This document shows, in pieces, positions 17,299 to 40,567 of a stretch of DNA of 64,000 bases. Origin of the DNA: Pseudeuparius sepicola (Eukaryota; Arthropoda; Insecta; Coleoptera; Anthribidae). The DNA lies in the NCBI GenBank assembly GCA_963920635.1, contig OY987307.1, forward strand, positions 3,472,001 through 3,536,000. Direction: 5' to 3'. The translations under genes were made by a program, and so were the position numbers. The notes below the pieces were generated by a model. The model was not told the origin of the DNA and did no database searches. It was given only the letters and a program-made list of their open reading frames with translations. How positions within the stretch are numbered: the first letter of the stretch is position 1; each line of letters begins with the position of its first letter.

Positions 17299-17485
17299 AT
17301 GTCCGTGAAGCTAGCTCCTAACTACGACCTGGCTCCTAGAATTTTACAGTGGACCAGTAAAGCAGTGCTTTTTAGGAGCTGACTTCCACCGTGAAGCTAG
17401 CTCCCAAATCATCATATTACAGGGGGGTATTTAAACAAAAAATGTAAAGCCAAAGCCGTCGGGCAAAATTGGGGGTGAAAAAACA
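17299..17485. repeat. Left terminal inverted repeat of giant element
   Basis: Matches 40390-40558 in reverse complement over almost all of its length. It carries an internal duplication of the tip (CCGTGAAGCTAGCTCC occurs at about 17303 and again near 17391). The second giant copy at 42050 has the same tip but lacks ~22 bases between the two duplicates. Confidence 0.92.
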
Positions 17486-20213
17486 GTGGCGGCGGTGGAA
17501 ATTGGGAAAGTACCCAAATGAACTCGGATCGGGAAAACTGTTGGTGATTGGACGGAGGGCATCCCGTGGTACAAGAAAAAATAAAGACAGTGGCGTGGCA
17601 AACGTCAGTGGCGGCGGTGGAAATGGGGAAAACGCTTAAATGAACTAGGATCGGGAAAACTATTGGGGGGTGTTTAGAGGACCCCTCGAGGTGCGGAAAA
17701 AAAATTAGACAGTGGCGTGGCAAACGTCAGTGGCGGCGGAGGAAATTGGGAAAGTGCCCAAATGAACTGGGATCGGGAAAACTTTTGGTGGGCGGGTAGA
17801 CGGCACCCTGGGGTGCACGAAAAAATAAAGACAGTGGCGTGGCAAACGTCAGTGGCGGCGGTGGAAATTGGGAAAACGCTTAAATGAACTAGGATCGGGA
17901 AAACTATTGGGGGGTGTTTAGAGGACCCCTCGAGGTGCGGAAAAAAATTAGACAGTGGCGTGGCAAACGTCAGTGGCGGCGGAGGAAATTGGGAAAGTGC
18001 CCAAATGAACTGGGATCGGGAAAACTTTTGGTGGGCGGGTAGACGGCACCCCGGGGTGCACGAAAAAATAAAGACAGTGGCGTGGCAAACGTCATTGGCG
18101 GCGGTGGAAATTGGGAAAACACTTAAATGAACTAGAATCGAGAAAACTATTGGGGGGTGTCTAGAGGACCCCTCGAGGTGCCGAAAAAAATTAGACAGTG
18201 GCGTGGCAAACGTCAGTGGCAGCGGTGGAAATTGGGAAAGTACCCAAATGAACTCGGATCGGGAAAACTTTTGGTGAGTGGGTAGACGGCACCCCGAGGT
18301 ACAAGAAAAAATAAATACAGTGGCGTGGCAAACGTCAGTGGCGGCGGTGGAAATTGGGAAAGTGCCCAAATGAACTGGGATCGGGAAAACTTTTGGTGGG
18401 TGGGTAGACGGCACCCCGAGGTACAAGAAAAAATAAATACAGTACCGTGGCAAACGTCAGTGGCGGCGGTGGAAATTGGGAAAGTATCCAAATGAGCTAG
18501 GATCGGGAAAACTTTTGGTGGGTGAGTAGAAGAAGGCACCCCGAGGTACAAGAAAAAATAAATACAGTGGCGTGGCAAACATCAGTGGCGGCGGTGGAAA
18601 TTGGGAAAACGCTTAAATGAACTAGGATCGGGAAAACTATTGGGGGATGTTTAGAGGATCCCTCGAGGTGCCGAAAAAAAATTAGACAGTAGCGTGGCAA
18701 ACGTCAGTGGCGGCGGTGGAAATTGGGAAAACGCTTAAATGAACTAGGATTGGGAAAACTATTGGTGGTGTTTGGAGGACCCCTCGAGGTGCCGAAAAAA
18801 AAATTAGACAGTGGCGTGGCAAACGTCAGTGGCGGCGGTGGAAATTGGGGAAACGCTTAAATGAACTAGGATCGGGAAAACTTTTGGGGGTGTTTAGAGG
18901 ACCCCTCGAGGTGCCGAAAAAAAATTAGACAGTGGCGTGGCAAACGTCAGTGGCGGCGGTGGAAATTGGGAAAACGCTTAAATGAACTAGGATCGGGAAA
19001 ACTATTAGGGGGTGTTCAGAGGACCCCTCGAGGTGCCGAAAAAAAATTAGACAGTGGCGTGGCAAACGTCAGTCGCAGCGGTGGAAATTGGGAAAAAGCT
19101 TAAATGAACTAGGATCGGGAAAACTATTGGGGGATGTTTAGAGGATCCCTCGAGGTGCCGAAAAAAAATTAGACAGTAGCGTGGCAAACGTCAGCGGCGG
19201 CGGTGGAAATTGGGAAAGTACTCAAATGAACTAGGATCGGGAAAACTATTAGGGGGTGTTCAGAGGACTCCTCGAGGTGCCGAAAAAAAATAGACAGTGG
19301 CGTGGCAAACGTCAGTGGCGGCGGTGGAAATTGGGAAAGTGCCCAAATGAACTGGGATCGGGAAAACTTTTGGTGGGTGGGTAGACGGCACCCCGAGGTA
19401 CAAGAAAAAATAAATACAGTGGCGTGGCAAACATCAGTGGCGGCGGTGGAAATTGGAAAATCCCTTAAATGAACTACGATCGGGAAAACTATTGGGTGTT
19501 TCGAGGACCCCTCGAGGTGCCGAAAAAAAATTAGACAGTGGCGTGGCAAACGTCAGTGGTGGCGGTGGAAATTGGGAAAACGCTTAAATGAACTAGGATT
19601 GGGAAAACTATTGGGGGGTGTTTAGAGGACCCCTCGAGGTGCGGAAAAAAATTAGACAGTAGCGTGGCAAACGTCAGTGGCGGCGGTGGAAATTGGGAAA
19701 ACGCTTAAATGAACTATGATCGGGAAAACTATTAAAGGGTGTTTATAGGACCCCTCGAGGTTCCGAAAAAAAATAGACAGTGGCGTGGCAAACGTCAGTG
19801 GCGGCGGTGGAAATTGGGAAAGTACCCAAATGAGCTAGGATCGGGAAAACTTTTGGTGGGTGGGTAGACGGCACCCCGAGGTACAATAAAAAATAAATAC
19901 AGTGCCGTGGCAAACGTCAGTGGCGGCGGTGGAAATTGGGAAAGTATCCAAATGAGCTGGGATGGGAAAAACTTTTGGTGGGTAGGAAGACAGCACCCCG
20001 GGGTGCAAGAAAAAATAAAGACAGTGGCGTGGCAAACGTCAGTGGCGGCGGTGGAAATTGGGAAAGTGCCCAAATGAACTGGGATCGGGAAAACTTACGG
20101 TGGGTGGGTAGACGGCTCCCCGGGGTGCACGAAAAAATAAAGATAGTTTCGTGGCAAACGTCAGTGGCGGCGGTAGAAATTGGGAAAGTACCCAAATGAA
20201 CTCGGATCGGGAA
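17486..20213. repeat. ~120-bp satellite array, about 23 units (left)
   Basis: Each unit contains CAGTGGCGTGGCAAACGTCA and GGCGGCGGTGGAAATTGGG. Two subtypes alternate irregularly. Type A has AACGCTTAAATGAACTAGG, CTATTGGGGGGTGTTTAGAGG and CCTCGAGGTGCCG. Type B has GTGCCCAAATGAACTGGG, CTTTTGGTGGGTGGGTAGACG and CACCCCGGGGTGCAAG. Long open frames on the minus strand (reading VCHATVFIFSCT repeatedly) are by-products of the repeat. The array stops abruptly at 20213. Confidence 0.95.
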
Positions 20214-20967
20214 AAATACATAATATTGCACACATTTTACATACATTTTGACAACAAAGTGATAGAAAACTAATTGGCAATAAGGTCACTCACAGCTTCT
20301 AAAAATTATATTTTTTCAAAGCAACAATATAAAAAGTTATTACCTACAAAATATTTTGTGTTTGCACTGGATTGATAAACCATGTTTAAATTTATTCGAC
20401 ATTTAACGATTTGTAGACTGTGGCAACAAGAGGAGTCAGGCGTTAAACACTAATAGGTACCTACTGAACATGGTTTAACAAACAACAATGCAAATGACCA
20501 TTAATGGGCTTAAAATATAATAAATGTGTAGTTTCAATTTGTCCAGTGTGGATACAAATTGTGGAATATTGCTTTTTTATTCCCTTTAATATTCGTCATA
20601 TCAAAAAAAAATAAAATGTTAAGGGAAATTATTTTCTGCTCGGTGATTTGGTAAGAAAAATTTAAAAGAAGAAAGAACAAAATCTTCTTTCGAATCTCAA
20701 ATACCTACCTATAAACCTATAACAACGAATACAACGAATGTTGGGTGCTACGTTGCAGCCGTAGTTTAAGCTAGGTTAGCGGAACGCTTGGGGACTGGTT
20801 GGGAATCGACAACCCTCAATTTCATTCGTTGATTTGAATTCTGGGATTTTTCCCACTTATCAAATTGGCAGTTGTCGATTCCAAACTAGTGTCCAAGTGT
20901 TCCGCGAACGTAGCTATTGACAGTTAGATACCTATGCATCTGTTATGCCTACTTCTATTCAAAATTA

Positions 20968-21477
20968 GTTTATAGGAAGGTTATTATATTCGAAGACTTT
21001 GAAGGGAAGGGGGGGGGTAAGAGAGGCAAGGAGGCAAAGTGGCGAATTTAAGTTAGTAGCATTTACATGTGAATTTGGCGATTTAGTAACTCCCTAAACA
21101 TTTGCCACTTCCAGCCATAGGCACACACAGGTGTTTTTGGCATATTCATTTGACTCTTGCAATCAAAGGCGTGTTTCTTGTTTATTTTGACTATTTTGTG
21201 GTGCATACTATGTTACTAAAAATGTGGCAATCCGTTGTTTATTATATTTTCCCTCGTGGAATGTGTTGGTATTTTTTGTTTCCGACCTTCGGTAACTGCG
21301 CCACTGGCATCAAATGAGACGAACAAGAGCAAGTGGTGGGGGCGGCATAGTCGCGCGACGTTGCCGCTGTGGGCGGTGTGGCCGCCACACCGCCCACACC
21401 GGCAACGTCGGCAACTGTGGCGGGACGACCTTTAGTTTTGTTTGAGAGTGGGGGAATGCCCTAACCTTCCTATAAAC
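20968..21477. repeat. MITE-like element with 16-bp perfect TIRs
   Basis: GTTTATAGGAAGGTTA at 20968-20983 is exactly inverted at 21462-21477. The inside has no coding potential. It includes a strong GC-rich hairpin at 21358-21406 (arms GTTGCCGCTGTGGGCGGTGT and its complement, nearly perfect). Confidence 0.7.
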
Positions 21478-23480: not shown

Positions 23481-24170
23481 GTTAATCAGGACACCCCAAT
23501 ACCCCCATATACCGAATTTGAACAAAAAATATACAGGGAGTTCCATTATGCAGGGTGTCAAAGTTGAGCAAAATAGGAATTTTAAAGGCATCTGCCAAAT
23601 CAAGTGTGCCATGGAATCCCCTCAAAACAGTTGAATGGTCAACAGGACCACTCAAGTTGTTGGTGTGCAAAGGTCCAATACGAAATATACAGAGTGCTCT
23701 TATCTGTGCCATCTAAAATTACTGAATTTTTTGTAACTTTATACCTGTCAAAAATCGAGTATATCAAAACCACTCCACATACTAAAATGAACTAAATCTA
23801 AAAATAAAGAAGCTTGCCAGTCAGTAAGTCCATATCAGTTAAGGTGGCTGGTGTGTCACAACAGGAAAGGCGCAGAAAATGTATCATCTTAGACAGTGAC
23901 TTTGTTGAGAAAGGCCCAATAATTTAAATTGTTTTTATTTGTTGGTTGGCATTTTGTAAAGAAATAAATTACTTTTGTATTTATTAACATTTTTCCAATG
24001 ATTCCAGAGCACTCCTGATAAATATAAAGTTTAATAAAAATTCAGAATTTTGAGATGGCTCAGAGAAAAATACCCTGTATATTTACCTATCTACCTACCT
24101 AATATACTAACTTCCGATTTTTTAAAAATTGGTTTTCTCTCATATTTATTTTTGCCTATTTTAGGAAATA

Positions 24171-24961
24171 TGCCAAAGTCACTAAGCTTTAATGTGATTA
24201 ATCTGATCGACATATTAAGAAAAAAAGCGCCAAATGGCACTTACGAGTATTTTTCATCCCTTGACATTAATAACGATATCATCAAAGAAGTTTGTCAAAA
24301 AATATTTAGAAAAGACACCAAACCCCTGAGGTATATTATTCAAAAAAATTTGGCTAGAAATAAAAAAATATTCTTTGATGATCAAAAAATCATCGCAGAA
24401 ACTTCTACTTCACCTCTACCAAAACCATTTCATAACATGACGGAAAAAACATAACAACATCTACGCATATATAACACCACCTATAGAGTCTAGTAAAATA
24501 ATGCCTATAACTGAAGAAACCACCATCAGATTACATGACAATAAAATAGAAAATAATACAATACCATAGGCCAAATATTTGATTTGTCGGTCAGAACAAC
24601 TAACCACTACATAAATAACACCAATCAAGGGGCAAAATGTCACTATTGTTAAGAACCCAGCAGATACAAAAATTCAGCTTTACAATTAAATTCCAATAGG
24701 TCATATTTTACCTGAAGGTTCAAAAAATAATCCAAATATGACAAGACAAAAAATTCGTTTTGACAACTGCCTCATAAAAGTAGGCAGTTTTTTAATGTCC
24801 AAGAATGAATTTAATGAAATTTGTTGTTCGGGCATGCTTACAGACTATTATATTACAATCAAACGCAAATTTGAATTGGTTAATAATACGTGCGTTCTCA
24901 ATTTAAAAAAAAACTGAAAAACTCAGCCGAGACAATATTTACAATTTACGCATATTGCGCG
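24171..24961 (+). pseudogene. N-terminal part of giant-element transposase
   Basis: The ATG follows an acceptor by a few bases (TTTTAG|GAAATGCC). About 95 residues read MPKSLSFNVINLIDILRKK and on to a stop at 24452-24454. Further 5'-part sequence follows with stops and frame changes: a segment reading TRQKIRFDNCLIKVGSFLMS near 24740-24800, then KRKFELVNNTCVLNL near 24860-24905, then a cysteine-containing FTIYAYCA segment. The env-only provirus cuts it at 24962, and reading resumes at 27385. No family domain is recognised in this N-terminal part. The Cys-His spacing around the insertion suggests a zinc-binding region. Confidence 0.55.
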
Positions 24962-25137
24962 AATTACGATACGAGACCACGGCAATTGCTTTTTAAAAAC
25001 AATTTATTAGAGAACGGAGTACAAGACTGGTTACATCTGGGGTTTTTACATCTTTTATAACATTAGAGAAGTGTTGAGTATAAAAAATCATATTACACTT
25101 AATTTCTGGATTTGCTTCCTCTCGTGGGAACGTAACT
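24962..25137 (-). repeat. 3' LTR of env-only provirus
   Basis: 176 bp; minus-strand ends AGTTACG...TAATT. It is preceded on the minus strand by a purine-rich tract. Confidence 0.92.
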
Positions 25138-25202
25138 CCTCCATCCCTTAGAAACGAGCACAGGGTGCGAGGTGATTTTAAATTGTTAATTGTTAAAATA
25201 TT

Positions 25203-26914
25203 TCAAAAGATATCTTTGTTATTTTCTTTTTCCTTTTGTTTTTTTATAATATGTTTTTGATAGAAAAATTTAATTAAAAATGAGAGTAAGGTTATTATTA
25301 TTATGAGGTAAATCAATATAGTCCAGAAACTAAGTTTGTTAAAATGAATCGGTACTTCAGAAATATTTTCTAATTTTCCTTTTTGCAAATCTAAAGCATT
25401 TTTGATATTATTAAATTCATTTGTGTTTACAGAATTCAATTTAAAATTTCTAAAATTAACAATCAAATCAGAATGAACATTATTTTCGAAATTTAAACTA
25501 GGTAAAACAATATTTTTATAATTAATTTTTGAGCTTTGATAAATTCTAATATTAAAGTCATTTACTTGCACTTCACAGTTCACTTCCATTTCTAACACAA
25601 AGGTTCCGTTTAAGGGTAGTTTTTGTTCACTGGATCCGCAGAATAGGGTAGCTATAGTCTCTTTGGGGGCGATAATTAACCATTGATTGTTTTCCATCTT
25701 ATGTACTCGGAGTTCGGGAACTTCTACAGGAATTTGTTGACACGACGTGGAGTTTTTGATAAAATTTAAAAGACTGACTTCGCATGGAGCGTTAGTTTCT
25801 ATTTTGGCTGGACTATGTTCATGGCACAGGTATTCTTCGGTGGTAATTTCTTGGCATTGCTTGTCCGTTGAGATATAATATTGCTCATTAAGGAGAAGGT
25901 ATTTCTCTTGAGGAAGGATTAGTTTGAATTTATTGTTTTTCGAGGGAGTTGGTATAGGATAAAGTCGATAGTATCTGTAGTTTTCTTGAAGCACTAATGG
26001 AATTTCTATTATAAAGACTAATTGATTTCCTTTGCTGTAACTTTTTATGTTTACTATTTTTTCAAATAATAATATGTTTTCAGTTATAGTGTCAAAAGGT
26101 AATTTGAATTTGTACAAATGCTTCTTGATTGATTTTAATTCTATTAATAAATCTAGCGGCTCAATTATTGAATTGTGTAAGGTATTTAATTTTGAAAATG
26201 TTATTGCAACTTCAAGTTTTTCTAAAATGTCGTATATCGTCTGATATGCCAGTGATATCTGAGAGATTACCATATCTATTTCAAAATATCTGAAAACTTC
26301 TATAGTTTCTATACTGTTTGCTTTAATAACTTCTTCTACGTTTTTCAATCTAGCATCTAATACTTCCTCGTTATGGCTAAGTATATCTGTAGTATTCTTA
26401 AATTTGGTAATAGATCTTTCCAAAAGGGTTATTTGTTCTTTTACGAGAGTCTTCAATTTTTGTTCATTTTGTGAAAGTGTAAATAAAGCTGAATCATATT
26501 TTTGTGCGTCTGTTTGATCCAAGTTTCCAGTTTTGTTTTAATTAAAGTGCCCAAGGGATCAAGTATGCCTCTTTTCTTTCTTATTATTGGGTTTATTTGA
26601 TTAATTTGTGAAATAATTTTGTTTTCCAAAACATTAATTAAGTTGTAGGAGTTATGAAATTCTTTTTTATAAGTAGATGAGTAATTAAAGCTATTCTTGA
26701 GTTCTGAAAACTTGCCATGAATAGTGTAAAATTGTTCAACTATTTTTGTTACATCAAAAGTTTGAATAAATGACCATTTATCAGTGGTGACTTTTGCATT
26801 TCCTAATTTTAAAGGTAGAAGTCCTGGATTTTCATTAAGGTTGTGAAATTTTGGCGTTAAAGCTCCTGTTCCGATGACGAGCAAAATCAGTGTGATGAAG
26901 CTCGATGTTTTCAT
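25203..26914 (-). pseudogene. env: Errantivirus-type envelope gene, one frame break
   Basis: The gene starts at 26914 with a hydrophobic signal peptide (MKTSSFITLILLVIGTG) and encodes a class-I-like envelope protein of the insect errantivirus/baculovirus F group. Visible parts are a furin-type cleavage site (RKKRG) about 115 residues in, coiled-coil-rich sequence after it, several cysteines, and a C-terminal membrane anchor (FWTILIYLIIIITLLSFLI) with a basic cytoplasmic tail ending at 25203. The reading frame changes once near 26,530, just after the cleavage site, so the gene is broken as read. The neighbouring provirus env (33824-35440) is a clear relative. Confidence 0.88.
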
Positions 26915-27204
26915 TTGTTTCTTCTTATACCTAGTGCCTATAAGTCCCGGCGATGCTTGTCCAGGTACTCAGGACTTCGTATCCTAAGGTCCTAAGAGGA
27001 GAGTTGTCGAAGTTGGACTTCTCCCTAGGCGTTCTCTCCGTGGTTCGTCTCGGTTGTGGGTTTCTCGGTGTCCTGCAGGCGAAGCTGTCCTTGCTGGATC
27101 CGTGGGGCCCGGTGTTCGGATCGATACCAATTTAACCGTTGATACAGCGCGATCGAATCTGCAACAGACTAACGACCGATTGGCAGCGTCCTACCGACTG
27201 CGCC

Positions 27205-27380
27205 AATTACGATACGAGACCACGGCAATTGGTTTTTAAAAACAATTTATTAGAGAACGGAGTACAAGACTGGTTACATCTGGGGTTTTTACATCTTTTA
27301 TAACATTAGAGAAGTGTTGAGTATACAAAATCATATTACACTTAATTTCTGGATTTGCTTGCTCTCGTGGGAACGTAACT
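27205..27380 (-). repeat. 5' LTR of env-only provirus
   Basis: 176 bp, about 98% identical to the other LTR. The primer-binding site is at about 27188-27204 (minus strand). Confidence 0.92.
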
Positions 27381-27384
27381 CGCG

Positions 27385-28113
27385 CATGAAAACTGTAAAA
27401 CGTTTCAAATTAAATTTAAAAAAATGAATGGGGATGGTGACATAAGCGGTGACGTTTTTAGCTCATCCTATGACTTTTGTCACCACAACGAAAAAAAACC
27501 ACTTACGTCCGTCGCACTGAAAGGCAGCTTTTAGGAGAGAAACTAAAATGTTCAACGCCATTCGTCCAGCGTCAAAATGACATAATGGAAACTCCTAAAG
27601 CACACATCGAAAACGGCAATTTACGAAACATCAAGTCGACGGACGTCTATCGAAAAATCAAATCCGAAAAAATTGCAGATTTGGATCGCCATAAAGACGA
27701 GATCATTGACCTCATTCTAATGGCCCGCGAAAATTCATATATATATATATATAGGGTTTTCGAACCTTTTACGGTATATGTATTTAGCAAAGAGCAGCTA
27801 GATATTCTATCATCCCAAAATGAAAGTGGGATTATATATTTAGACGCTACAGGACAATTAGTGCACTTACCGCCACACTCCATCGAAAAAAAGCGAGTTC
27901 TGTATTACGTAGGGGTAATTCATATACCGGAAAAGGAAATTATATTTCCGATTTTACAACTGATTACAGTGAATCATGATGCGTTCTCTATCGGTGCTTG
28001 GTTGTATGCTTTTCAGTCTTTCTGTAGCAAGTCTAAAATTAAATGGCCTCCATTTTCAGTTATCGTCACAGATTTTAGTTTTGCTATAATAAATGCAGTA
28101 AATTACACATACA
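27385..28113 (+). pseudogene. Giant-element transposase, DDE core first part
   Basis: After the env-only provirus, the frame resumes and from about 27490 (one frame change near 27485) is open to the second provirus. It reads through a basic segment (TYVRRTERQLLGEKLKC) to the first catalytic Asp at 27843 (IIYLDATGQ). It continues through KRVLYYVGVIHI and PILQLITVNHDA to the second Asp at 28071 (VIVTDFSFAIINAV). These are the hallmarks of a DDE/RNase H-fold transposase of a MULE/KDZ-like group. The provirus at 28114 inserted in the codons after NAVNYTY. Skipping it and one copy of its TSD, the frame continues at 35652 without a shift. Confidence 0.78.
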
Positions 28114-28280
28114 AGTAACATCCCTGTATTTGTACGTGTAGCTAAAGATAACATTACGCTGAGTCTGCTTCTCTGAATTTATAAATATAACCCATGTAAT
28201 TTCAACAGACACTTCTTGTTCGCTGCTCGTCATTAAACATTGTTTTTAAAAACGGTTTCTTTCATTGACAGCCCTTAACT
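28114..28280 (+). repeat. 5' LTR
   Basis: Starts AGTAACATCC, ends CCCTTAACT; very short for this group. The TSD TACA is at 28110-28113. Confidence 0.94.
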
Positions 28281-28796
28281 GGCGCAGTCGTTCGGACTTT
28301 TAGCGAAACGAAAAACCAAAAATCGGTACCTTTCGGTCTCTTTCAAGAGTTCATTCGCAAAAGAACCAATCGGTCGGCGATTCGCGCGCGCGGAATCCAA
28401 AAATCGGCACTTTCGCCACGTGAACGTCGATACCAAGGGCCAACGGTCAGTGAAGCAGCCGTCGAGACGACAGGAGCAAGATAGTCAGCAAGGGTGGTCT
28501 AGCATCGATCCAACCCTCCTCTGCAGCAGAACAAGCATCGTCTGTGAGCAGAACCCTAGGTTAAGAAGCCTGGGAGGAGACACACATCGCTCGTCCTAGA
28601 GGCACCGTAGTTTAAGAAGAAAAAAGAAGAGTGAAAATGAGAATCATCGTTTTTCTACTAGTGTAAGTGTAAATTGTGCTTTTTGTTTTAACTTTTTGTG
28701 CGTGTTTTACCCAAACTGGAAGATTTAGAAAATTTAATATCCTCTGTAGAAAACTAAACTTTAAATTTAAATTCGGAACTTGGAAATCCAATAATC
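28281..28796 (+). promoter_or_regulatory. Primer-binding site, leader and splice-donor candidate
   Basis: The primer-binding site TGGCGCAGTCG begins at the LTR edge. The untranslated leader contains a small ATG frame at 28637 encoding a hydrophobic peptide and ending at a strong donor-like GTGTAAGTG (about 28661). That is suited to joining a signal peptide to the env exon. Confidence 0.6.
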
Positions 28797-30080
28797 ATGC
28801 CAAACGGTAATGCAATCAATTATAACCTTTTAAAATATCAAGCTGATAATATACCCCCTTTCGATGGTAACCCAAAACTCTTGCAAAGATTTGTAAACGC
28901 TTGTGAAAATTTTCTGAAAGCCTTCCAAAATGTCCAAAATGCAGCAGACCCGATTAATATATGTTTATTTGACACAATTTTGAGTAAATTAAGAGATAGA
29001 GCGGCAGACCTTATTGCATCACGTTCAGAATTAAATAATTGGATTTTAATAAAAAACGCACTAATAGCTACTTTTGCCGATCAACGAAGTATTGATTGTC
29101 TTATTCAGGACCTAATTTCGTTAAGACCATTTCGTAATGAACCACCCTTACAGTTCGGAATGCGAATCCAAGATACGCGTAGCCTCCTTTTTGCAAAACT
29201 TAATGGCACTAACGAGGACCGCAATATAAAAATTGTTAAAATTAATCATTATGAAGAATTTGCTCTCAAAACCTTCATTAACGGTTTACCTTACAATATG
29301 CAGCTTGTAGTTAGGCTTAAACAACCTGATTCTCTTGAACAGGCAATGTCGTTTGTGACAGAAGAAGAAAATTTTGTTTATTTCAAGACAGGCCAAAATC
29401 AAAATTTTAGACAACCAGTACATAATAGTATTCCATACAGACCAAAACCAACAAATTTACCGAGACCTAACAATCCTAATTTTAAACCACCACCATTTCC
29501 ACAACCAAACTTTAATTTTCCACAATATATTCCCCCAACATTTAACCAACCGCCTACATTTGGACGTTCTCCCACATTTGGAACACCTTTTAATCATTTT
29601 AATCAACCAAGACCAAGTTTCCCAAACTTTATGCAACAAAGACCGAATTTTCAAAATTTTACTCAACAAAGACCAACTTTCACACAAAACTTCCAAAGAC
29701 CTTTCCAACCCCAATTTAGACCAAACTTTCCCCAAAAAACTAATGTTACTAACATGTCTAGAACGAAACCAGAACCAATGGATACCTCAACAAGTACACT
29801 TGTAAAACAACCCCAACGTACATTTCAAAGTCAGGAACTTGTTAACCAAGACGTAATCGAAAATTTCCCCAAAACTGACTCAGTTCAATATCCGGAATAT
29901 ACTGATTATTCTCAGCCAAATTATTATCCCGATTATGACTATTATTACAATGACGCTTACGAAAACTATTGCTACCCTCAATACGGTATATGTGAATTCC
30001 CGAACCAAGAAGAAACCCAACCAGAAATTACTGAAAATCAGGATTTTCCAGATACTGGTCAGGATTCCAATACGAAATAA
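28797..30080 (+). CDS. gag: Gag polyprotein
   Basis: 427 residues, uninterrupted. The N-terminal ~200 residues are a capsid-like helical region ([20 protein letters not shown], with later [17 protein letters not shown] helices) like Gypsy/Ty3 Gag. Residues ~205-330 are a Pro/Phe/Asn/Gln-rich low-complexity stretch ([18 protein letters not shown]). The C-terminal part is tyrosine- and acid-rich. There is no CCHC zinc knuckle, which is usual for errantiviruses. It assembles the particle and binds RNA, presumably through the basic/aromatic repeats. Confidence 0.9.
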
Positions 30081-30094
30081 TACACCTAAATAAT

Positions 30095-32158
30095 TTGTCA
30101 ATAAAACTTACTTATATTTATATACCCGAATTAGACGCTAAATTTTTAATCGATTCTGGAAGCACACGTTCCTTTTTAAGCCCAAAATTAGCCTTTAAAT
30201 ATTTCCCAAATTATGTCAAAAGTGAACTTTTCTTAGTACAAACAGCGCACGCGACATCTTTCCATGACAAAATTGCTATTTTGCCACTATTTCCAATTTT
30301 CAATACAGAAGGTATACATAAATACTACATATTTGATTTTTCAGAAAAATTTGATGGACTTATAGGTTTAGATTTAATACTTCAATTAGGCGCAGATATT
30401 TGTTATAGTAATAACACTTTAGTTAGCCCAAATTCAATTATACCAATTTATAGGCAAAACGAAAATGATTTAGAACCACAAAATTCGACACAATTTGAAA
30501 CAATAACTGAAATAATTCCTCCGAGAATGGTACAAAAAATTAAAATACCTGTTAGTTTACGTAACGGCACAGGAATCTTAAATTACACAAAACTAGGAAA
30601 AGCTGAAATTCCCGAATGTTTAGTTAATGTTGAAAATAATTTTGCTCTTACCACTATTTTAAACCCAACGAAAAACCCCATTAAAATCGATATTTTTGAA
30701 CCATTTTCAATAGAATCAGTAAACCCAAGTGAACTGAATTTTTTCGAAAATGTTGAAGGACATGCCCTAGATAAATCTATCGATAATCAATTAAAAGCTA
30801 ATCTCAGAAATTTAAGACTAGAACATTGTAACAGCGAAGAACGCGAACAAATCAGAAAGCTTTGCTTAGAATTCAGAGATATCTTTCATTGTGAAGATAT
30901 TCCCTTGAGTTTTACCAATCAGGTCAAACACGAAATTAAATTAACTAATGAGTCCCCAATTTTCACTAAAAGCTACAGATATCCAAAAGTTCACCGACAA
31001 GAGGTAAAAGATCAAATTTCAAAATTACTATCACAAAATATAATTCAAAATTCCAATTCACCTTGGTCATCCCCGATATGGGTTGTCCCAAAAAAAATGG
31101 ACGCCTCTGGAAAACAAAAATGGCGCATGGTAATTGACTACAGGAAACTCAACGAACGAACAATAGATGACAAATACCCACTACCGAACATAACTGACAT
31201 TCTAGACAAATTAGGACGCAGTCAGTATTTCACTACATTAGACCTCGCGAACGGATTCCACCAAATTGAAATGCAACCAACCGATATCCCAAAAACAGCT
31301 TTCAGCACAGACACAGGGCATTACGAATTTTTGAGAATGCCCTTCGGCCTTAAGAACGCGCCAGCAACTTTTCAGCGAGTTATAAATAATATTTTACGTG
31401 GACTACAAAACGAAACCTGCTTTGTTTATTTGGACGATATCATTATATTTAGCACATCCCTTCAGGAACATATTCACCGACTAAAAGACATTTTTGTAAG
31501 ACTTCGTAATTCTAAATTAAAAATACAGCTCGATAAGTCAGAATTTCTCCGAAAGGAAGTACAGTATCTCGGACACATAGTAACACCTGATGGAATTAAA
31601 CCCGATCCTAGTAAAATCTCCGCAGTTAAGAATTTCCCAGTACCTACCACTTCTAAAGAAATTAAATCTTATCTAGGCTTATTAGGTTACTACCGTCGCT
31701 TCGTGAAGGATTTTGCAAAGATAACAAAACCTCTAACACAATGTCTTAAAAAAGACGCTAAAATCCAACATACTAAAGAATTTTTAAACGCATTTGAACA
31801 TAGCAAAAATTTATTAATTAATTATCCGATTTTAATTTATCCCGATTATTCCAAGCCATTTATATTAACTACGGATGCAAGTAACTTTGCTTTAGGAGCA
31901 GTTCTTTCACAGGGCCAAGTACCTAACGACAAACCCGTAGCATTCGCTTCGCGCACCCTAAATGAATCGGAAATAAAATACTCGACTATTGAGAAAGAAT
32001 TACTAGCAATCGTTTATGCCTGCAAGTACTTTCGGCCATATTTGTTTGGACGAAAATTTTATATTTACACGGATCATAGACCACTTGTTTGGTTATTTAA
32101 CTTAAAAGAGCCAAATTCAAAATTAGTCAGATGGAGATTACGTTTTAGAAGAGTTTGA
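30095..32158 (+). pseudogene. pol: Pol polyprotein, protease-RT-RNase H part
   Basis: Open for 687 residues in a frame different from gag. The retroviral-type aspartic protease motif is [11 protein letters not shown] (residues ~17-27). Reverse transcriptase carries the [20 protein letters not shown] region, [17 protein letters not shown] motif and the catalytic [11 protein letters not shown] near residue 445. RNase H starts with [16 protein letters not shown] near residue 590 and includes [13 protein letters not shown] and [10 protein letters not shown]. The frame breaks near 32140, the expected connection to integrase is in another frame, and a further stop lies near 32302. As read, it is not functional. 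Confidence 0.92.
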
Positions 32159-32366
32159 TTATCAAATTATTTATAAAAAAGGTTGTCAAAATAAAAATGC
32201 GGACGCACTATCACGAATTCAACTTAACATATACGAAAATCAATCTACTGTAAATAATCCCGGTGAAGTAGATAAAGACATTTTAGATTACCTTCAAAAT
32301 TTATGAGAAAACACTGAAACTTTCGAAGAGCCAACAACGAGCGAACAGGAACCCAAAATTAAAATA

Positions 32367-33794
32367 TTGTCGGATATACAAATTAAACCCCCACATGACA
32401 CAATTACTGACACGGTACATACTTCGAACACGGACACTAGAAATGACGGAATCAGCGTTCTTGACGAAATTATAAACAATAAATCCCATCAATATTTAAT
32501 AAAAAGAAATCTACACGACCAAATAAAAGTAACCTTTGAAATCCTCGACAAAAACGTCATTAACCATTGCCAAATTCCCAAAAACCCAGAAATAATAAAT
32601 AAATTCATAAAAGAATATATTTCAGGTGACAAAAACTCGTATTTATATTTTTTCGAAGAAGATCTATTTCCCCTTTTCAATAAAGTTTACATGAATAATT
32701 TTAAAGATTTAAAATTAATTCGTTGTACTAAACTAGTAAATAACGTTACAAATGAAGAAGACAGAAAAATATTTATTATGCATCAACATGAAAATAAAAC
32801 TAATCACAGAGGCATTTCTGAGACATATGAAAGATTAAAACAAAATTATTATTGGCAAAAAATGAAAGACGATGTTACCCAATTTATCAATGATTGTGTA
32901 AAATGCCAGACCCAAAAATATAGTCGACAAAAATCATACATCCCTTTAGTTAGAACTGAGACGCCAACAAAACCATTTCAAATTTTACATATGGACACAT
33001 TTATATTCGAAAATCAAAACTTTTTAACAATATTTGACAAATTCTCAAAATTCGGGCAAGCCTTTCCCTACGATAAAAATGCAAAGTCGGTATGCGACAA
33101 GTTAATAATATTTTTCTCATTTTTTGGATGCCCAGAAACAATTGTGTCTGATAGCGGAACAGAGTTTAAAAATGAACTTCTCAAAGAACTACTAAAAACT
33201 CAAAAAATTAACATTCATTTTACCACTCCGGGCCATCACGAGTCTAATTCCCCAGTAGAGCGCTTTCACTCAACTTTAATAGAGCACTTGAGATTATTAA
33301 GGCAAAAAGATAAGTCCAGAACAATTTCTGAGTTAATCCCCTACGCAATAATAGCATATAACAGTACCACCCATAGTACGACAAAATTCTCCCCTCATGA
33401 ACTCGTGCTAGGTCATACTAACTCTAGAGATCCTTTCGACCTTATATCAACCACTTTTTACACAGATTACGTCGACTCACATAACGAAAAATTAAGTACC
33501 CTATACGAAACAGCGTTCGAAAATACAGAAAAAGTAAAAACTAAAATGCTAGAAAGAACAAATGTTAAAGGCGAACAAACTGAATTTAAGTTGAACCAAA
33601 AAGTGTATAAAAAATCTTCCGCTCGAAATAAAAGTAAACAAAAATACATCGGCCCTTTTGAGATCATTGAAATTCTTGAAAACAACAAAGTCAAAATTAA
33701 AAACTTAAAAATTCCCCAAAAAACGGAAGTAATACACATAAAGGAATTAAAACGCCCACTTGTTACAGATGGTCCGCCCGCAGAATCTCAGTAG
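32367..33794 (+). CDS. pol: Pol integrase part
   Basis: 475 residues open. The H-H-C-C zinc-binding domain has C177 and C180 (FINDCVKCQ). The catalytic core has D210 (LHMDTF), D262 (VSDSGTEF) and E298 (NSPVERFHS), the integrase D,D-35-E triad. The C-terminal region is basic (QKVYKKSSARNKSKQKYIG), as in the GPY-type module. It is separated from the upstream pol by a frame change and a stop, so it is only the distal part of the polyprotein. The coordinates start at the first in-frame Met. Confidence 0.9.
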   Translation: MSDIQIKPPHDTITDTVHTSNTDTRNDGISVLDEIINNKSHQYLIKRNLHDQIKVTFEILDKNVINHCQIPKNPEIINKFIKEYISGDKNSYLYFFEEDLFPLFNKVYMNNFKDLKLIRCTKLVNNVTNEEDRKIFIMHQHENKTNHRGISETYERLKQNYYWQKMKDDVTQFINDCVKCQTQKYSRQKSYIPLVRTETPTKPFQILHMDTFIFENQNFLTIFDKFSKFGQAFPYDKNAKSVCDKLIIFFSFFGCPETIVSDSGTEFKNELLKELLKTQKINIHFTTPGHHESNSPVERFHSTLIEHLRLLRQKDKSRTISELIPYAIIAYNSTTHSTTKFSPHELVLGHTNSRDPFDLISTTFYTDYVDSHNEKLSTLYETAFENTEKVKTKMLERTNVKGEQTEFKLNQKVYKKSSARNKSKQKYIGPFEIIEILENNKVKIKNLKIPQKTEVIHIKELKRPLVTDGPPAESQ

Positions 33795-33823
33795 AATCAG
33801 CTGCCGGATCAAATTTCCACAAC

Positions 33824-35440
33824 ATGAACGATAGCCCAGGCATACTGCCTTATAAACTAGGTAACGCGCATAAAGTTATTAACCATTGGGCATTCATACA
33901 GATATTTAATATATCCAGTATCATTACTGAATTTAAGGCTTTATCATTAAAATATAATATGATTATATCTCACATAAAAAACAACACGGACTATGAAGGG
34001 AATTCTATAATTCGTACATACTTATCAACAATCTAGAAAATAAAATAGAGGAACAAATTTCACAAATAACTCCTTCCACGAACTTATCTAGGAAAAAACG
34101 CGGCTTAATTAACAGTTTAGGGAATATAATCAAGAGTTTAACAGGAAATTTAGATCAAGAAGATGCAGCTAAATACGATAGTGAAATCTCAGTTTTAAAA
34201 GAAAACCAAAATAATCTGAAATTATCAATGGATAAACAATTAACAATACTATCAAGCTCTATTATAACATTCCAAGAAATCGTAGCAAATGTATCTCACA
34301 ACCAACAAATTTTGGAATCAAAGATATCTGAAATGATAAGGGTAATCCATAACTATGAACTAGAAACTTTAGATATTTCTATCCAGACAAGGATGCAAAT
34401 GGTTTTAACACAAATTTTAATGATGTATCAGAACATTTATGATATTTTAGACAAAATTGAAGTCGCTGTATCTTTCGCAAAAATTAATAATTTCCATAAT
34501 GCAATAATACATCCTATTGAACTACTAAAACAAATAAAGTCTGTTGCCTCTTCTTTACAAAATGAAAAATTACCGTTTGACCCGGTTATGGAAAATATTT
34601 TAAACTTTGAAGAAATATTGGAAATAAAATGCTATTCTAAATTTGAAGAAATAATTTTTATTATAGAAATACCGTTAGTTGAAAATGAGTCTTACAATCT
34701 TTTTCACATGTTTCCACTACCAACCCCTAACCAAAATTTCTACAAGGTAATATTTCCCAGTTCAAATTATTTAATGTACAATCAAAAAAGATATGGATTT
34801 TCGGACAAACCCTGTAAGAAAATTATAAATGAATTTCTTTGTTTTGATAATATACACACAGAATATGTTAACGATGACTTACCCTGTGAGATCGGATTAT
34901 TAAAATATAAACATAAGAATAATTGTAACCAAATCGCCATCAATATATCTGAGATTCAAGTACAAAAAATTGACGAAAGTAAATGGATAGTCATTATTCC
35001 CAGTGAGACCTTAGCTGTCAAAAATTGTTACAATACTAAAGAAACTGTTCTGCTTAGCGGAACCTACTTAATAGAACTGGAATTCCCTTGTTCCCTAAAA
35101 ATCAACGAGACAATTATTAAATCTTATAAAAATGTACAAACAATGTTTAAAAAAATACCATTACCAAAAATGCAAATCAATGTATCAGATAATTATATTT
35201 TACAGAAGATGTCTCCAGTAAATTTAAATGTAATTCATACTGACAGACTAAATAACTTGTTGAATGAAATCAATACACAAAAGTTTATTATAACAAAATA
35301 AGTTTATGGACAATATTATTGTATGTGTTAATCATAATTGCAGTTTTATATTTTATATGCAAGTATCTAAGACCTAGTTTTTCAAAATTATCTATTTCCA
35401 AAAATAAAAATAATACAAAAGAAATTATTGTCTAGGTCAT
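33824..35440 (+). pseudogene. env: Errantivirus-type envelope gene, broken
   Basis: Related along its length to the minus-strand env at 25203-26914. It starts in an NDSPGILPYKLGNAHK region equivalent to the mature N-terminus of the other copy, with no signal peptide of its own; that probably comes from the leader exon near 28637. A furin-type site (RKKRG) is at about 34091-34105. Cysteine-containing ectodomain sequence follows to 35301, and the membrane anchor (LLYVLIIIAVLYFI) and tail are at about 35305-35435. Frame changes occur near 33990-34010 and near 35298, so it is inactive as read. Confidence 0.88.
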
Positions 35441-35480
35441 AGAAACTTATAAAGTTTATATGTCCCTCTAAGGGTGGAGG

Positions 35481-35647
35481 AGTAACATCCCTGTATTTGT
35501 ACGTGTAGCTAAAGATAACATTACGCTGAGTCTGCTTCTCTGAATTTATAAATATAACCCATGTAATTTCAACAGACACTTCTTGTTCGCTGCTCGTCAT
35601 TAAACATTGTTTTTAAAAACGGTTTCTTTCATTGACCGCCCTTAACT
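35481..35647 (+). repeat. 3' LTR
   Basis: Identical to the 5' LTR except for one base near its end. The TSD TACA is at 35648-35651. Confidence 0.94.
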
Positions 35648-35651
35648 TACA

Positions 35652-36524
35652 ATAAGTGTGAGGATATTAGCGACTACGTAAAAATAATATATTTGAATTT
35701 AAGTGAGGGAAGTCACAAAATTCCCAAAATTGTCTTGAAAATATGCGTCTGTCATTTTGTAAAATTTATAGTCAACGACATAAACAAAATATGCGGAAAA
35801 AATCAAGACCATAAATTATTTTTCAAAAAAACTACTTAATGCCATAGTTATGAATAACATAAAACAAGTGGAAAAATGGTTCTTGTTACTACAAAATATT
35901 TGCACTTCCGCAGATTACAGTAAAACTAAACAACTGATTGAGGCTTACTTAAAAAATAAAGATAATTTAGAATTATTAGTAGATGTGGATGTGGACATAA
36001 ATGACGAGTCTATTTATCCAACAAAGGATTTTGAAAATAATACTTTATTTTCAAAATCCCTATTTTATCAACACTTCAAATCACTTGAAAAAAAGGCTGG
36101 CAAAAATCAATCCAATGACAACAATAATTACTTCTATCCTGAAATTGTGGAGTTGGTATTGAAAAAATACATACCTTACTTACCGTTATGGACAAATATA
36201 TTTAATTCGGTTGGATCACCTAAGACTATATATAGCAACGCACCGGTAGAGAACCATTTTAAAAAATTGAAAAGTAATATATTACCTTCAAAAGGTTTAA
36301 GATGTAGTAGGTTTATAAGGTTCACTAGAGAATTTACATTATCCATGTATAAGGAGATTTCTTTAGATATTAGTAAAGTCAGGTGTGCTGTGGGCCAAAA
36401 AAAGATAATAAATAATGAAATGGAAATTGAAGAAGGTTGGCAAAAAAAAGAAAAACGGAGAAAAGCTCTTTATGAACCATCTTTATCCGAAAAGACAACA
36501 AACCTCGGAACTTTTTGGATATAA
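35652..36524 (+). pseudogene. Giant-element transposase, DDE core second part
   Basis: Continues the reading frame interrupted at 28113. The segment reads CVCHFVKFIVNDINKIC near 35745-35795, resembling the Cys-His motif that MULE-type transposases carry between the second and third catalytic residues. A one-base frame change falls at an A7 run (35825-35831), after which the frame is open from about 35832 to 36524. The third catalytic acidic residue is Glu at 36249-36251 (APVENHFKKLK). A charged C-terminal linker follows (QKKEKRRKALYEPS). The frame ends at a stop beside a T5 run (36512-36516) and continues one frame over into the protease domain. Confidence 0.75.
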
Positions 36525-37347
36525 AAGTGAGAGAAAATATAACAATGAAAGATTTTGAATATTATAAGGAAATTCCTCTTAATTACGTAGTTGGCTGGTA
36601 TGAAGGTGCTACACCTTTTGAATATTTGACAATATCAGATTTTTGTACCCTGAACGACAACCAATGGCTTTCAAATTTTTTAATAGACGTTGCACTGTTT
36701 TTATTCGCCCAAAACAAAATCCATGTGCAGTATATAAATACTCATATAACAACACAAATCTGCAATAATGTCGACACTAATTTAAAACTAAAAATAATAA
36801 ATATTTTTATAGTTCATCAAAATAAAAATCACTGGTGTTTAGTTGTTATAAATAATGAAAAAAAAAGTTTTTTTCTTTTATAGACCCCCTAGGAAGCTCC
36901 GAGCTAGAAACAAAGAAAAAATTAAAAATATTTTCAAAAGCTTTAAATTTAAATGAAGAATATAAAATCCAAATGTTTCTACACCCATTACAGAAAGATA
37001 CATATAATTGCGGCGCTTACGTTGTTGCATTCGCCGAAAAAATAATATATAACGATTTTAACTTGTTTGCAATAAGGGAACCAGAAAATTACAGATTATA
37101 CTTAAAAGAATTTCTTTTAACAAAATCGGATAATTTAGCCGATAGATGTATTATATGTGGGGAAATTCAATTAGATCTTACAGCAGAATGGGTCATGTGC
37201 GAAATATGCAAAAGGTGGGCCATGGTACAGTGTTTGTCTGGGCAATATGCATTAACTGAAAAACCAGCACTAATTAAATACTACCATTGGCCGCCCTGTA
37301 AAAATTATAAAGAGGAGAAAGCCAATATTAATAAGATAAGCACATAA
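36517..37347 (+). pseudogene. Ulp1-like protease and PHD-like finger of the giant-element transposase
   Basis: A C48/Ulp1-type cysteine-protease domain: the entry motif LNDNQWLSNFLIDVAL at about 36650-36695, catalytic His in KNHWCLVVI (36830), Asp in IDPLG (36883), oxyanion Gln in HPLQKDTYNCG (36991) and nucleophile Cys at 37009. All four key residues are present. A frame change lies in the A9/T7 run at 36858-36874. A C-terminal zinc finger follows (CIICGE, then CEICKRWAMVQC, then WPPC), like a PHD finger although one His position is not standard. Ulp1 enzymes remove SUMO; here the domain may act on host chromatin proteins or on the transposase itself. That role is inferred. Confidence 0.8.
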
Positions 37348-37499
37348 ATATACCTACATCACCGCCGGGGGGTGCGTGACATAAGCGTGAGCCACGTGTG
37401 CCTCAATATCAGAGAATAAAAAAAGGTATAGTTATAATTTGCATAGGTACCACGAAAAGTCAGTCAAAAACACATCATTCATTCGGTGAAAGAGCAGAT

Positions 37500-38106
37500 T
37501 TTGAAAAACTTTTTTGTTAGATACTTCTTGCAAAGTCTGATGTAGTATTTTCTAGACTTTGCTTCTAGGTCTTCTAAAAACGTAGGTACCTACCTACCTA
37601 AAGCGCAGTTTACATGACTTGCTTCGCTTCAGTTTAAGGTGAGAAAATTCATAAAACAGTAGGTAGGTATTAGCATAGCCGAACCAAACCATTCGACCAT
37701 GCGGTATTATAGCGATTTTTTTACGCGGATTTAACATCAGATTCTTGTTCAAGCAGCCTAACCCCTTGCTTAGTTCTATAGTTTTTGTTTTAGCAACAGA
37801 AATATTTTGCTTCTCTTGTAAAGTTCAACAATTTTATACGATGTTCTCCATAAAAGTTAAACGAAATATTATTGAAGCAAACAAAAACTAGTGTTAATTG
37901 GTTTTAAGTCAATAAGAATCTGATGTTAATTTACACGTAAAAAAACGCTATTATTATTGTTTCCTGAATTTTCGCACCTAAAACTTAAGCGCAGCATGCC
38001 CTAACTTTCATTCAGTATTTCAGCAATAAGTAATCTTCAAACGCTTTAGGTACCCACGTTTTTGGAAGTCTATCTAGCAAAAAAAAAAGTTTTTCAAGAT
38101 CGGTTA
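37500..38106. repeat. Foldback element, family F, copy 1
   Basis: Outer arms GAAAAACTTTTTTGTTAGA and its complement, inner arms around TTAACATCAGATTCTTG. It shares tip and inner sequence with the copy at 39143-39620. Confidence 0.75.
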
Positions 38107-39142
38107 ACAATAAAAAGTTTTAAAGGGTTGTCCGATATTATCAGTCTCTTTTTAAAATCTTCATGAGAATTCTCTGGGTAGTGACTGATTATGATCGGAG
38201 AGTTTTTCGGAGCCTTTGAAATACTTAGGTACGATTCATATTCCAATTCAAATTTGACGTTTTAGGCCAGTAAAGGCATATTTTAACGAAATTAACCAAG
38301 TGGCCATAGTTATTCACAATAACCTGACTTTATTTTCACTTTTATGCAATAAAAATTAAAAATGATCAAAGGACTATTTCTGGAGTCTGGTTAACGAAGC
38401 CTTTTAATTGAAATTGACAAAAAAAACAATACCTACCCGAATAAGGCTATTTCAAACTATTTTTCCTTCCTTTTGACAGGACTTTCACTGGCTTGGTTAT
38501 TTTTAAACAACTATGGTCATTTAGTTAATTCGCGAAAATACGGCTAAGTAAACAGGTAAAAACCGAGAAATTTAACAGTAAAGCCTTGTTTATGCATGTT
38601 AAATTAAGTTCATGCCGTTCGTGTAATATTCATGTAAGATCAACCAATGAAAATTTTTCGCAATGCTGCCAACCTCTGATCAAGTTTCAAAATCATTTCT
38701 AGTTAGGGCCGATTATTCACCTTTCAAAAAAGTGTTCTTGAAGAGATTGTTGTAAATGAACGTCTCTGTAAAGATTACCGAAAGAATAAATTTAGTCAAA
38801 TCAACTGGCAACTGGCAAGAAAGTGACAGAAATAGTATAAACGTTGGTACCACCATTTTTATGTGGTTGGTACAAGTGAATATACCCCAAATGTATACAT
38901 ATACCTGCCTTTAATGTTAAATTTTTCGCTTATACCTATTTACTGGCCAATGTATAGTTTAATTTATGCTTTTTATAATAATATAGTTTATTTTCTTAAT
39001 AATAGCAAATAAAAATATGTTTTTGTGTTTTTGTTTTACATGTTAAAAATATTTTGTTATTTTATTACGTTTCATTTGACTTCATTTACGCTTATATACA
39101 TACAGTGTGTGCGTGTGGGTGGGTGTTTGTGTGTGGGTGTGT

Positions 39143-39620
39143 GTTGGATAGGTCTTCCAAAAACGCACCTAAGGCGCATATCAGATGTTTGTTAAATGGA
39201 AGTCATGTCTTGCTACAGTTGCTAGCTTCACTTGTAGGTGCGAACATTCAAGAAACCACAACGATTTGTTTAGGCGGAAACTAATATCAGATTCTTGTTC
39301 AGAGTGGTCTAAAACCCATTAGAACTAGTTTTTTATTCGTCTCAAAAGTATTTTGTTTTACTCTTGTATCTGGAAAATTAGAATTTTTTCTCCATTTATA
39401 AGAGTAAAATAGAGTATTTTTGAGTGGAATAAAAACTAGTACAAAGGGGTTTTAGGCCCCTCTGCACAAGAATCTGATATTAGTTTCCACCTAAACAAAT
39501 CGCGGTTTCTTGAATTTTCGCACCTAAAAGTGAAGCAAGCAACTGTAGCAAGTCACGACTTCCATTTAACAAAAGTCTGATATGCGCCGTAGTGCGTTTT
39601 TGGAAGACCTGTCCAACAAA
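39143..39620. repeat. Foldback element, family F, copy 2
   Basis: Arms of ~170 bases face each other (GTCTTCCAAAAACGCAC... and its complement; CTAATATCAGATTCTTGTTC and its complement) around a centre near 39380. Confidence 0.82.
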
Positions 39621-39815
39621 AAAAAAGATTTTCAAAATCGGTGCACAAATACAAATTTTAGAGGGATCGCACATCCAATGGGACACACTATATCATATTT
39701 TTGTATAGTTATAATATTTCGTTTTTGCAAATGTTTTTATAGTATTTATTTTTGGTTTTATTGTTTGTTTTTTTATACTACCTAAAATTGTTTCCTTACA
39801 CGAATTTTGCCTTCA

Positions 39816-40389
39816 CTGTTTTCCCGATCCCAGCTCATTTGGGTGCTTTCCCAATTTCCACCGCAGCCACTGACGTTTGCCACGCCACTGTCTATTTTTT
39901 TTTCGGCGCCTCCAGGGGTCCTCTGAACACCCCCTAATAGTTTTCCCGATCCTAGTTCATTTAAGCGTTTTCCCTATTTCCACCGCCGCCACTGACGTTT
40001 GCCACGCCACTGTCTTTATTTTTTCGTGAACTCCGGGGTGCCGTCTACCCACCCACCAAAAGTTTTCCCGATCCCAGTTCATTTGGGCACTTTCCCAATT
40101 TCCACCGCCGCCACTGACGTTTGCCACGCCACTGTGTTTATTTTTTCTTGTACCTCGGGGTTCCGTCTACCCACCCACCAAAAGTTTTCCCGATCCCAGT
40201 TCATTTGGGCACTTTCCCAATTTCCACCGCTGCCACTGACGTTTGCCACGCCACTGTCTAATTTTTTTTCGGCACCTCGGGGGTCCTCTAAACACCCCCC
40301 AATAGTTTTCCCGATCCTAGTTCATTTAAGCGTTTTCCCAATTTCCACCGCCGCCACTGACGTTTGCCACGCCACTGTCTTTATTTTTT
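39816..40389. repeat. ~120-bp satellite array, about 5 units (right, inverted)
   Basis: The same A and B units as at 17486-20213 but in reverse orientation, ending next to the right TIR. The array is much shorter than the left one. Confidence 0.93.
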
Positions 40390-40558
40390 CACCCCCAATT
40401 TTGCCCGACGGCTTTGGCTTTACAATTTTTGTTCAAATACCCCCCTGTAATATGACGATTTGGGAGCTAGCTTCACGGCTCCTAAAAAGCACTGCTTTAC
40501 TGGTCCACTGTAAAATTCTAGGAGCCAGGTCGTAGTTAGGAGCTAGCTTCACGGACAT
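40390..40558. repeat. Right terminal inverted repeat of giant element
   Basis: Reverse complement of 17299-17485, ending GGAGCTAGCTTCACGGACAT. Confidence 0.92.
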
Positions 40559-40567
40559 TTCATTTAC

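What the first reader, a model, noticed from the sequence alone, without database searches (positions are those of the whole stretch)
17299..40558. Giant transposon with a DDE-Ulp1-PHD transposase and satellite-built terminal repeats
Both ends and a perfect 9-bp TSD (TTCATTTAC) are visible. The single gene combines a MULE/KDZ-like DDE core (D27843, D28071, E36249), a complete Ulp1-type protease set (H36830, D36883, Q36991, C37009) and a PHD-like finger. TIRs built from kilobases of a two-subtype satellite are unusual for a cut-and-paste element. A second copy begins at 42050. A DDE enzyme joined to a SUMO-protease-like domain and a chromatin reader suggests interplay with host chromatin; that is inference.
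Basis: partly seen in the sequence, partly recalled or inferred. Interest (0 to 1): 0.88.

Follow-up and report, generated by a model that had tools for sequence, protein, structure and literature searches.

The report
Satellite-ended Rehavkus-type transposon, broken copy
This is a broken, retrotransposon-bloated copy of a known but little-studied kind of animal jumping gene (Rehavkus) whose ends are built of satellite DNA; some relatives in the same genome are near-perfect palindromes with a transposase gene in each arm.

Summary
In detail: ends at 17299 and 40558, a perfect 9-bp TSD, inverted 122-bp two-subtype satellite, all seven named residues. The reading needs correction. (1) The 23,260 bp include two nested LTR retroelements; without them about 13.3 kb remain. 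(2) The gene (24170-37335) is dead here: both retroelements and at least five frame changes split it. Another copy in this genome is intact (1075 aa, TSD TCGTTGGTG). (3) The kind is published as Rehavkus: 9-bp TSD, PHD finger, satellite in inverted termini. Two Tribolium proteins, 36-56% identical to the pieces, together give DDE-Ulp1-PHD, so the protease is native. Two further results. The broken element, with both retroelement junctions, also lies on another contig, 99.3-100% identical in sampled pieces but with other flanks, so it probably moved in trans after breaking. Some relatives are giant palindromes: 19 of 53 clusters of protein matches are outward-facing pairs, none inward; two read end to end are 99-100% mirror-paired with 9-bp TSDs.

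The parts
17290..17298 (.). left target site duplication TTCATTTAC
   Evidence: identical to 40559-40567
17299..17483 (+). left terminal inverted repeat before the satellite; CCGTGAAGCTAGCTCC occurs twice
   Evidence: same ends at other loci
17484..20215 (+). left 122-bp satellite array, 22.4 copies, two subtypes
24170..37335 (+). transposase gene remnant (DDE-Ulp1-PHD-like) in at least eight pieces, split by two LTR retroelements and at least five frame changes
   Evidence: tblastn of the intact 1075-aa protein of C2:61298406-61301633
24962..27380 (-). nested, internally deleted LTR retroelement; LTRs 97.8% identical, env-like ORF; TSD CGCG at 24958-24961 and 27381-27384
27382..28112 (+). transposase segment with first two catalytic Asp (27843, 28071)
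28114..35647 (+). nested Gypsy-like LTR retroelement with Baculo_F-type env ORF; LTRs 99.4% identical; TSD TACA at 28110-28113 and 35648-35651
35645..36515 (+). transposase segment with CxxH motif and catalytic Glu (36249)
36443..37335 (+). Ulp1-type protease (H36830, D36883, Q36991, C37009) and PHD-like finger
39818..40390 (-). right 122-bp satellite array, 4.7 copies, inverted
40391..40558 (-). right terminal inverted repeat
40559..40567 (.). right target site duplication TTCATTTAC
42050..43118 (+). left end and satellite of a second copy
55361..55721 (+). continuation of the second copy's satellite after a nested transposon (43119-55360)

Best explanation
The region is a dead copy of a Rehavkus-type DNA transposon (sister to the MULEs or a basal branch of them). 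In an intact copy one intronless gene encodes a DDE transposase with a C-terminal Ulp1-type protease and a PHD-like finger. The transposase is inferred to recognise the short terminal motif and possibly repeated sites in the satellite, to cut both ends and to join the element to a 9-bp staggered target; the 9-bp duplications at several copies are that step's footprint. The satellites are part of the terminal inverted repeats and vary in copy number. The Ulp1 domain is inferred to remove SUMO-like marks from the transposase or repair factors, which is untested. This copy was inactivated by frame changes and two LTR retroelements and is nevertheless present at a second site, so an intact copy probably moved it in trans.
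For: Perfect TSD and inverted satellite ends. Same ends elsewhere; 6 of 10 fully read pairs with 9/9 TSD. Intact copy C2:61292990-61307544 with a 1075-aa ORF; C48 above Pfam's cut-off in its 882-aa part. Tribolium P0010/P0011 at 36-56% identity over the same segments, 96% identical to each other where they overlap, P0011 with C48 and PHD above cut-off and a match to yeast Ulp1 1euv (E 2.1e-5). CxxH between D2 and E in 6 of 6 sequences that cover it (that this marks MULEs is recalled). Rehavkus described with 9-bp TSD, PHD finger, minisatellite and satellite in the inverted termini of Rehavkus-1_TC. The same broken element at C2:72360186-72385796: both retroelement junctions at 100%, 99.3-100% identity in the sampled pieces, different flanks.
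Against: No Rehavkus reference sequence was available, so membership rests on anatomy and on Tribolium proteins not shown to be Rehavkus-1_TC. 3 of 10 element pairs lack a TSD. The C2:72.36M copy has an 8/9 TSD, a 13.8-kb tandem duplication, and is 2.35 kb longer than the window's copy for reasons not read. The PHD His is Met in the window's family and in P0011; the PHD hit of the intact copy is below Pfam's cut-off, as were C48 and PHD for the window pieces. The Ulp1 Asp is Asn in P0011. Structure models were unusable (pLDDT 49.5 and 32.8); the fold search with the first gave nothing at E <= 0.001.
Confidence: 0.87

Rival explanations
1. A true MULE of another clade (Phantom-like, or an Ulp1-bearing Mutator as in hydra or lancelet) that gained satellite ends independently, as foldback-like elements did, and not Rehavkus.
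For: Ulp1 is in print for hydra and lancelet Mutators; Mutator/Foldback Tm1 has composite TIRs and 9-bp TSDs (abstract); Rehavkus is placed beside MULEs as outgroup or member.
Against: PHD finger, 9-bp TSD, satellite in both termini and matches in Tribolium are jointly the Rehavkus description. A survey of arthropod MULEs (1.4-10.0 kb) keeps Rehavkus as outgroup.
Confidence: 0.1
2. A KDZ (Kyakuja-Dileera-Zisupton) element.
For: A large DDE element; not supported by any hit here.
Against: No KDZ or Zisupton model was among the Pfam hits; a Tribolium match is labelled as a MULE transposase domain protein.
Confidence: 0.02
3. The two near-identical broken copies arose by segmental duplication and not by transposition.
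For: The C2 copy adjoins a tandem duplication, so that locus is rearranged.
Against: Similarity starts exactly at the first element base at both ends and each site has its own 9-bp repeat (9/9 and 8/9).
Confidence: 0.12

Closest known systems
Rehavkus-1_TC (Tribolium castaneum; Kapitonov, Gentles & Jurka 2006, as cited in PMC10218199)
   Same: Insect DNA transposon with short satellite arrays in inverted termini (passages); 9-bp TSD, PHD finger, one ORF for the group (passages). Tribolium encodes two overlapping DDE and DDE-Ulp1-PHD proteins 36-56% identical to this one.
   Different: 164-bp monomer, mostly five and eight copies, 9.5 kb; here a 122-bp two-subtype monomer, 4.7 and 22.4 copies, about 13.3 kb without the LTR retroelements. 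Whether P0010/P0011 are Rehavkus-1_TC was not tested.
Ulp1-bearing Mutator and Ulp1/PHD-bearing Ginger1 transposases (PMC2836005)
   Same: C-terminal Ulp1, with PHD in Ginger1-9_HM, on a DDE transposase (passages).
   Different: Ginger1 is integrase-like; satellite termini are not mentioned in the passages seen.
Foldback-like elements: Galileo (PMC3688188), Tetris (PMC4079207), Tm1 (PMC3169594)
   Same: Long TIRs, with internal tandem repeats in Galileo and Tetris; the Galileo transposase binds many sites in them; Tetris gave rise to satellite DNA (abstracts).
   Different: Different transposases (P superfamily for Galileo, Phantom-like for Tm1, apparently none of its own for Tetris); no Ulp1 named in those abstracts.

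Membership tests
Rehavkus | 9-bp TSD | tested here: met
   window 9/9; of 10 fully read copies 6 have 9/9, 1 has 8/9, 3 none
Rehavkus | satellite/minisatellite inside the inverted termini | tested here: met
   also the C7, C8 and C1 relatives
Rehavkus | single ORF | tested here: met
   intact copy has one 1075-aa ORF; the window copy is broken
Rehavkus | PHD finger in the transposase | tested here: met
   P0011 above Pfam cut-off; window piece 0.0025 and intact copy 0.011, both below cut-off; PDB PHD match E 0.0073; one ligand His is Met
Rehavkus | TIR 26-400 bp | tested here: met
   168-185 bp before the satellite
Rehavkus | transposase sequence groups with Repbase Rehavkus | not testable with these tools
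   no reference sequence held; Tribolium homologues are only indirect
MULE superfamily | DDE core with CxxH between second D and E | tested here: met
   6 of 6 covering sequences; the motif's meaning is recalled
Ulp1 (C48) protease | H-D-Q-C set and family profile | tested here: met
   residues; P0011 1.1e-10 and intact copy 1.6e-8, both above cut-off; window piece alone 0.0023, below; the D is N in P0011
KDZ/Zisupton | KDZ transposase similarity | tested here: inconclusive
   no transposase model of any kind hit these pieces in Pfam; no KDZ reference sequence available

The most novel reading that the evidence does not exclude
Rehavkus-type elements of this genome include a structural class in which the whole element is an inverted repeat: in each arm the end, a satellite array and a full transposase gene reading outward, mobile as one 18-22 kb palindrome with a 9-bp TSD. 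The element in the window would be a relative without the second gene. Some encode DDE-YqaJ-Ulp1-PHD; the exonuclease could take part in making or homogenising the palindrome by resection and fold-back annealing (inference).
Probability: 0.6. Interest if true: 0.72.

Novelty: new member of a known kind. Interest (0 to 1): 0.52.

Why it matters
It gives a little-described transposon kind a genome with an intact protein, defined ends and evidence that a broken 23-kb copy was moved after breaking. It links satellite DNA, SUMO-protease-like domains and palindrome formation in one system whose parts can be tested, and offers a route by which satellite arrays are carried to new sites.

Tried and rejected
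No relative of the DD segment or of the E-segment alignment was confirmed in viral contigs. The DDE alignment's only PDB sequence match has E 0.73 and is not a transposase. KDZ was considered and dropped for lack of any support. Homopolymer sequencing error as the cause of the frame changes was considered: one break lies in an A/T run, but two of the broken frames recur with the same lengths in the second genomic copy, which argues against random error. Assembly artefact for the palindromes was considered: unequal satellite numbers in the arms, direct 9-bp repeats outside, flanks that stop pairing at the ends and one broken arm gene in C1 argue against it. No tree was built, for lack of MULE/KDZ/Rehavkus references. 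The host species was not identified.
Full report
WHAT IS THERE. The ends, the perfect 9-bp TSD, the inverted two-subtype satellite and all seven named residues are confirmed. Their target duplications are TACA and CGCG. Both carry an ORF with the Baculo_F envelope domain; the first also has reverse transcriptase and integrase ORFs. They were only described. Taking their lengths off leaves 13,299 bp (arithmetic). Some of that is palindromic, MITE-like sequence at 37497-38101, 39142-39618 and 20769-20915 (the name is inference).

THE GENE. Pfam on the window pieces gave only sub-threshold C48 and PHD hits. Searching the E-containing piece and then alignments built on it listed 2, 9 and 7 proteins at E <= 0.001, 13 different ones in all. 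Two come from Tribolium castaneum and one from the leaf beetle Gonioctena. P0010 (455 aa) is 56% identical over 156 aa to the DD segment. P0011 (487 aa) is 42% identical over 183 aa to the E segment and 36% and 42% to the two Ulp1/PHD segments, with C48 and PHD above Pfam cut-offs. P0010 and P0011 are 96% identical where they overlap. The window's own genome (769 Mb, 16 contigs, unnamed) holds an intact copy at C2:61292990-61307544 (TSD TCGTTGGTG) with one ORF of 1075 aa. One search showed an 882-aa version because its locus was cut. Against that protein the window gene runs from 24170 to 37335 in at least eight pieces, with at least five frame changes besides the two insertions. So the domain set is real and in one gene; this copy is dead.

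WHAT KIND. A 2019 MULE survey lists Rehavkus as: arthropods and annelids, 9-bp TSD, TIR 26-400 bp, one ORF, PHD finger, minisatellite (passages). [quoted passage not shown] A 2026 arthropod MULE survey uses Rehavkus as outgroup and reports MULEs of 1.4-10.0 kb (abstract and passages). A 2010 paper reports Ulp1 in Mutators, Ulp1 with PHD in one Ginger1, and a figure aligning these domains of both groups (passages). So the combination and the satellite ends are both in print; this is a new member. Eight held papers mention Rehavkus; I saw passages of four and the listing of the others. The main text of the 2019 survey does not contain Ulp1. Rehavkus itself is described in Repbase reports, which are not held.

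COPIES. The 411-bp left end has 339 matches; of those listed most cover the satellite part only, and not all were listed. I picked element pairs from the listing. Where both ends were read (10 pairs, the window's included), TSDs are 9/9 in six (window, C2:61.29M, C8:20.31M, C2:55.37M, C7:33.68M, C2:73.45M), 8/9 in one (C2:72.36M) and absent in three (C9:11.10M, C7:23.24M, C2:79.69M). C2:55.37M was read by eye, its left end being altered. C7:23.24M, C2:79.69M and C2:73.45M sit in copies of one host repeat, so they are not independent. Seven further ends (C1:33.85M, C3:40.91M, C2:76.04M, C9:21.61M, C1:109.23M, C10:4.92M, and the window's second copy) had no partner fetched, and at C4:23.99M no terminus was found.

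MOVEMENT AFTER BREAKAGE. The locus C2:72360186-72385796 holds the same broken element: 497/497 and 514/515 bases at the two ends, 99.3% over 1.9 kb of the left side (satellite), 99.7-99.9% over the transposase and LTR pieces compared (matches over 97% and 250 bp listed), and 100% across both retroelement junctions. The intact copy lacks those junctions. Similarity stops exactly at the element ends and the flanks are TGTCCATGT/TGTCTATGT. Two of the broken frames have the same lengths in both copies. The C2 copy is 2.35 kb longer and was not read whole. The simplest account is transposition of a 23-kb non-autonomous element in trans; direction and helper are inferred.

PALINDROMES. P0011 has 101 matches in the genome (best candidates only, so a lower bound) in 53 clusters at 12-kb linkage; 19 clusters are outward-facing pairs, 34 lie on one strand, none faces inward or is mixed. 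The two arms are about 99% identical in the 4 of 4 pairs compared. Two elements were read end to end. C8:20523636-20541644: 18,009 bp, TSD AAATATAGA (both ends then begin ATGAGCG), 146-bp satellite 22.8 and 15.8 copies, two 1019-aa ORFs with no difference in 3060 bases. C1:32286411-32308832: 22,422 bp, TSD GGCGATGGG, 163-bp satellite 40.5 and 30.5 copies, a 1303-aa ORF in one arm and a broken one in the other. Mirror-paired bases (inverted self-matches over 85% identity within 4 kb of the mirror place, a lenient measure in satellite) are 100% in C8, 99% in C1, 73% in C7:33679497-33694381 (whose ends are 71% like the window's), 30% in the intact C2 copy and 16% in the window element. The C8 protein has YqaJ and Ulp1 above Pfam cut-offs; its PHD is read by eye and was not called by Pfam. 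In the C1 protein Pfam called only C48. YqaJ is otherwise reported beside ISL2EU transposases (passages). Two literature searches for palindromic transposons or paired transposase genes showed none: 0 occurrences of 'two transposase genes' in the 16 papers, and 0 of the three palindrome or inverted-gene phrases in the 20 of 36 papers listed. Most subscription papers and Repbase are not held, so this is weak evidence of novelty.

HOW IT WORKS. Shown: ends, TSD length, one-gene coding in an intact copy, a broken copy at two sites. Inferred: cut-and-paste by the DDE core, binding to repeated sites in the satellite (precedent: Galileo, abstract), deSUMOylation by the Ulp1 domain, chromatin reading by a finger whose His is Met in this family. 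Palindromes could arise by fold-back repair and be kept identical by gene conversion; nothing here tests this.

Noticed in passing
window 43119-55360: A roughly 12-kb DNA transposon with ends CCCAGCCAGCAC/GTGCTGGCTGGG and a 2-bp repeat (CT) is inserted in the satellite of the second copy; it spans a 723-aa ORF (50926-53097) with a DUF4218 hit below Pfam's cut-off.
   Followed up: partly
L061-L065, C1:32286411-32308832; L049, L050, L069-L071, C8:20523636-20541644: Fully palindromic Rehavkus-like elements with one outward-facing transposase gene per arm (one of the two broken in C1) and 9-bp TSDs; 19 outward pairs among 53 clusters of P0011 matches, none inward.
   Followed up: yes
L050:1-2418: Transposase with YqaJ exonuclease, Ulp1 and a PHD-like finger in one ORF; Gonioctena P0008 and P0004 show the same WxxER..R.T.SNF stretch, and P0008 a PHD-like finger.
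   Followed up: partly
window 56527-58431: A pogo/Tigger-type transposase (DDE_1) with its own C-terminal PHD finger above Pfam cut-off, lying between two stretches with reverse-transcriptase-type ORFs.
   Followed up: no
window 24962-27380 and 28114-35647: Two LTR retroelements with Baculo_F-type envelope ORFs, short LTRs and different target duplications (CGCG, TACA).
   Followed up: partly
L017, L018, L019: Three short copies lie in the same host repeat; in two of them the 26-27 bp next to both ends are inverted repeats of each other instead of a TSD.
   Followed up: partly
C2:72346423-72360186: A 13.8-kb tandem duplication at the right side of the second broken copy.
   Followed up: no
window 8055-9134 (-), 14258-16921, 60020-61836: PIF/Harbinger-type (DDE_Tnp_4) and two further pogo-type (DDE_1) transposase genes or remnants; the window is rich in transposons.
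   Followed up: no
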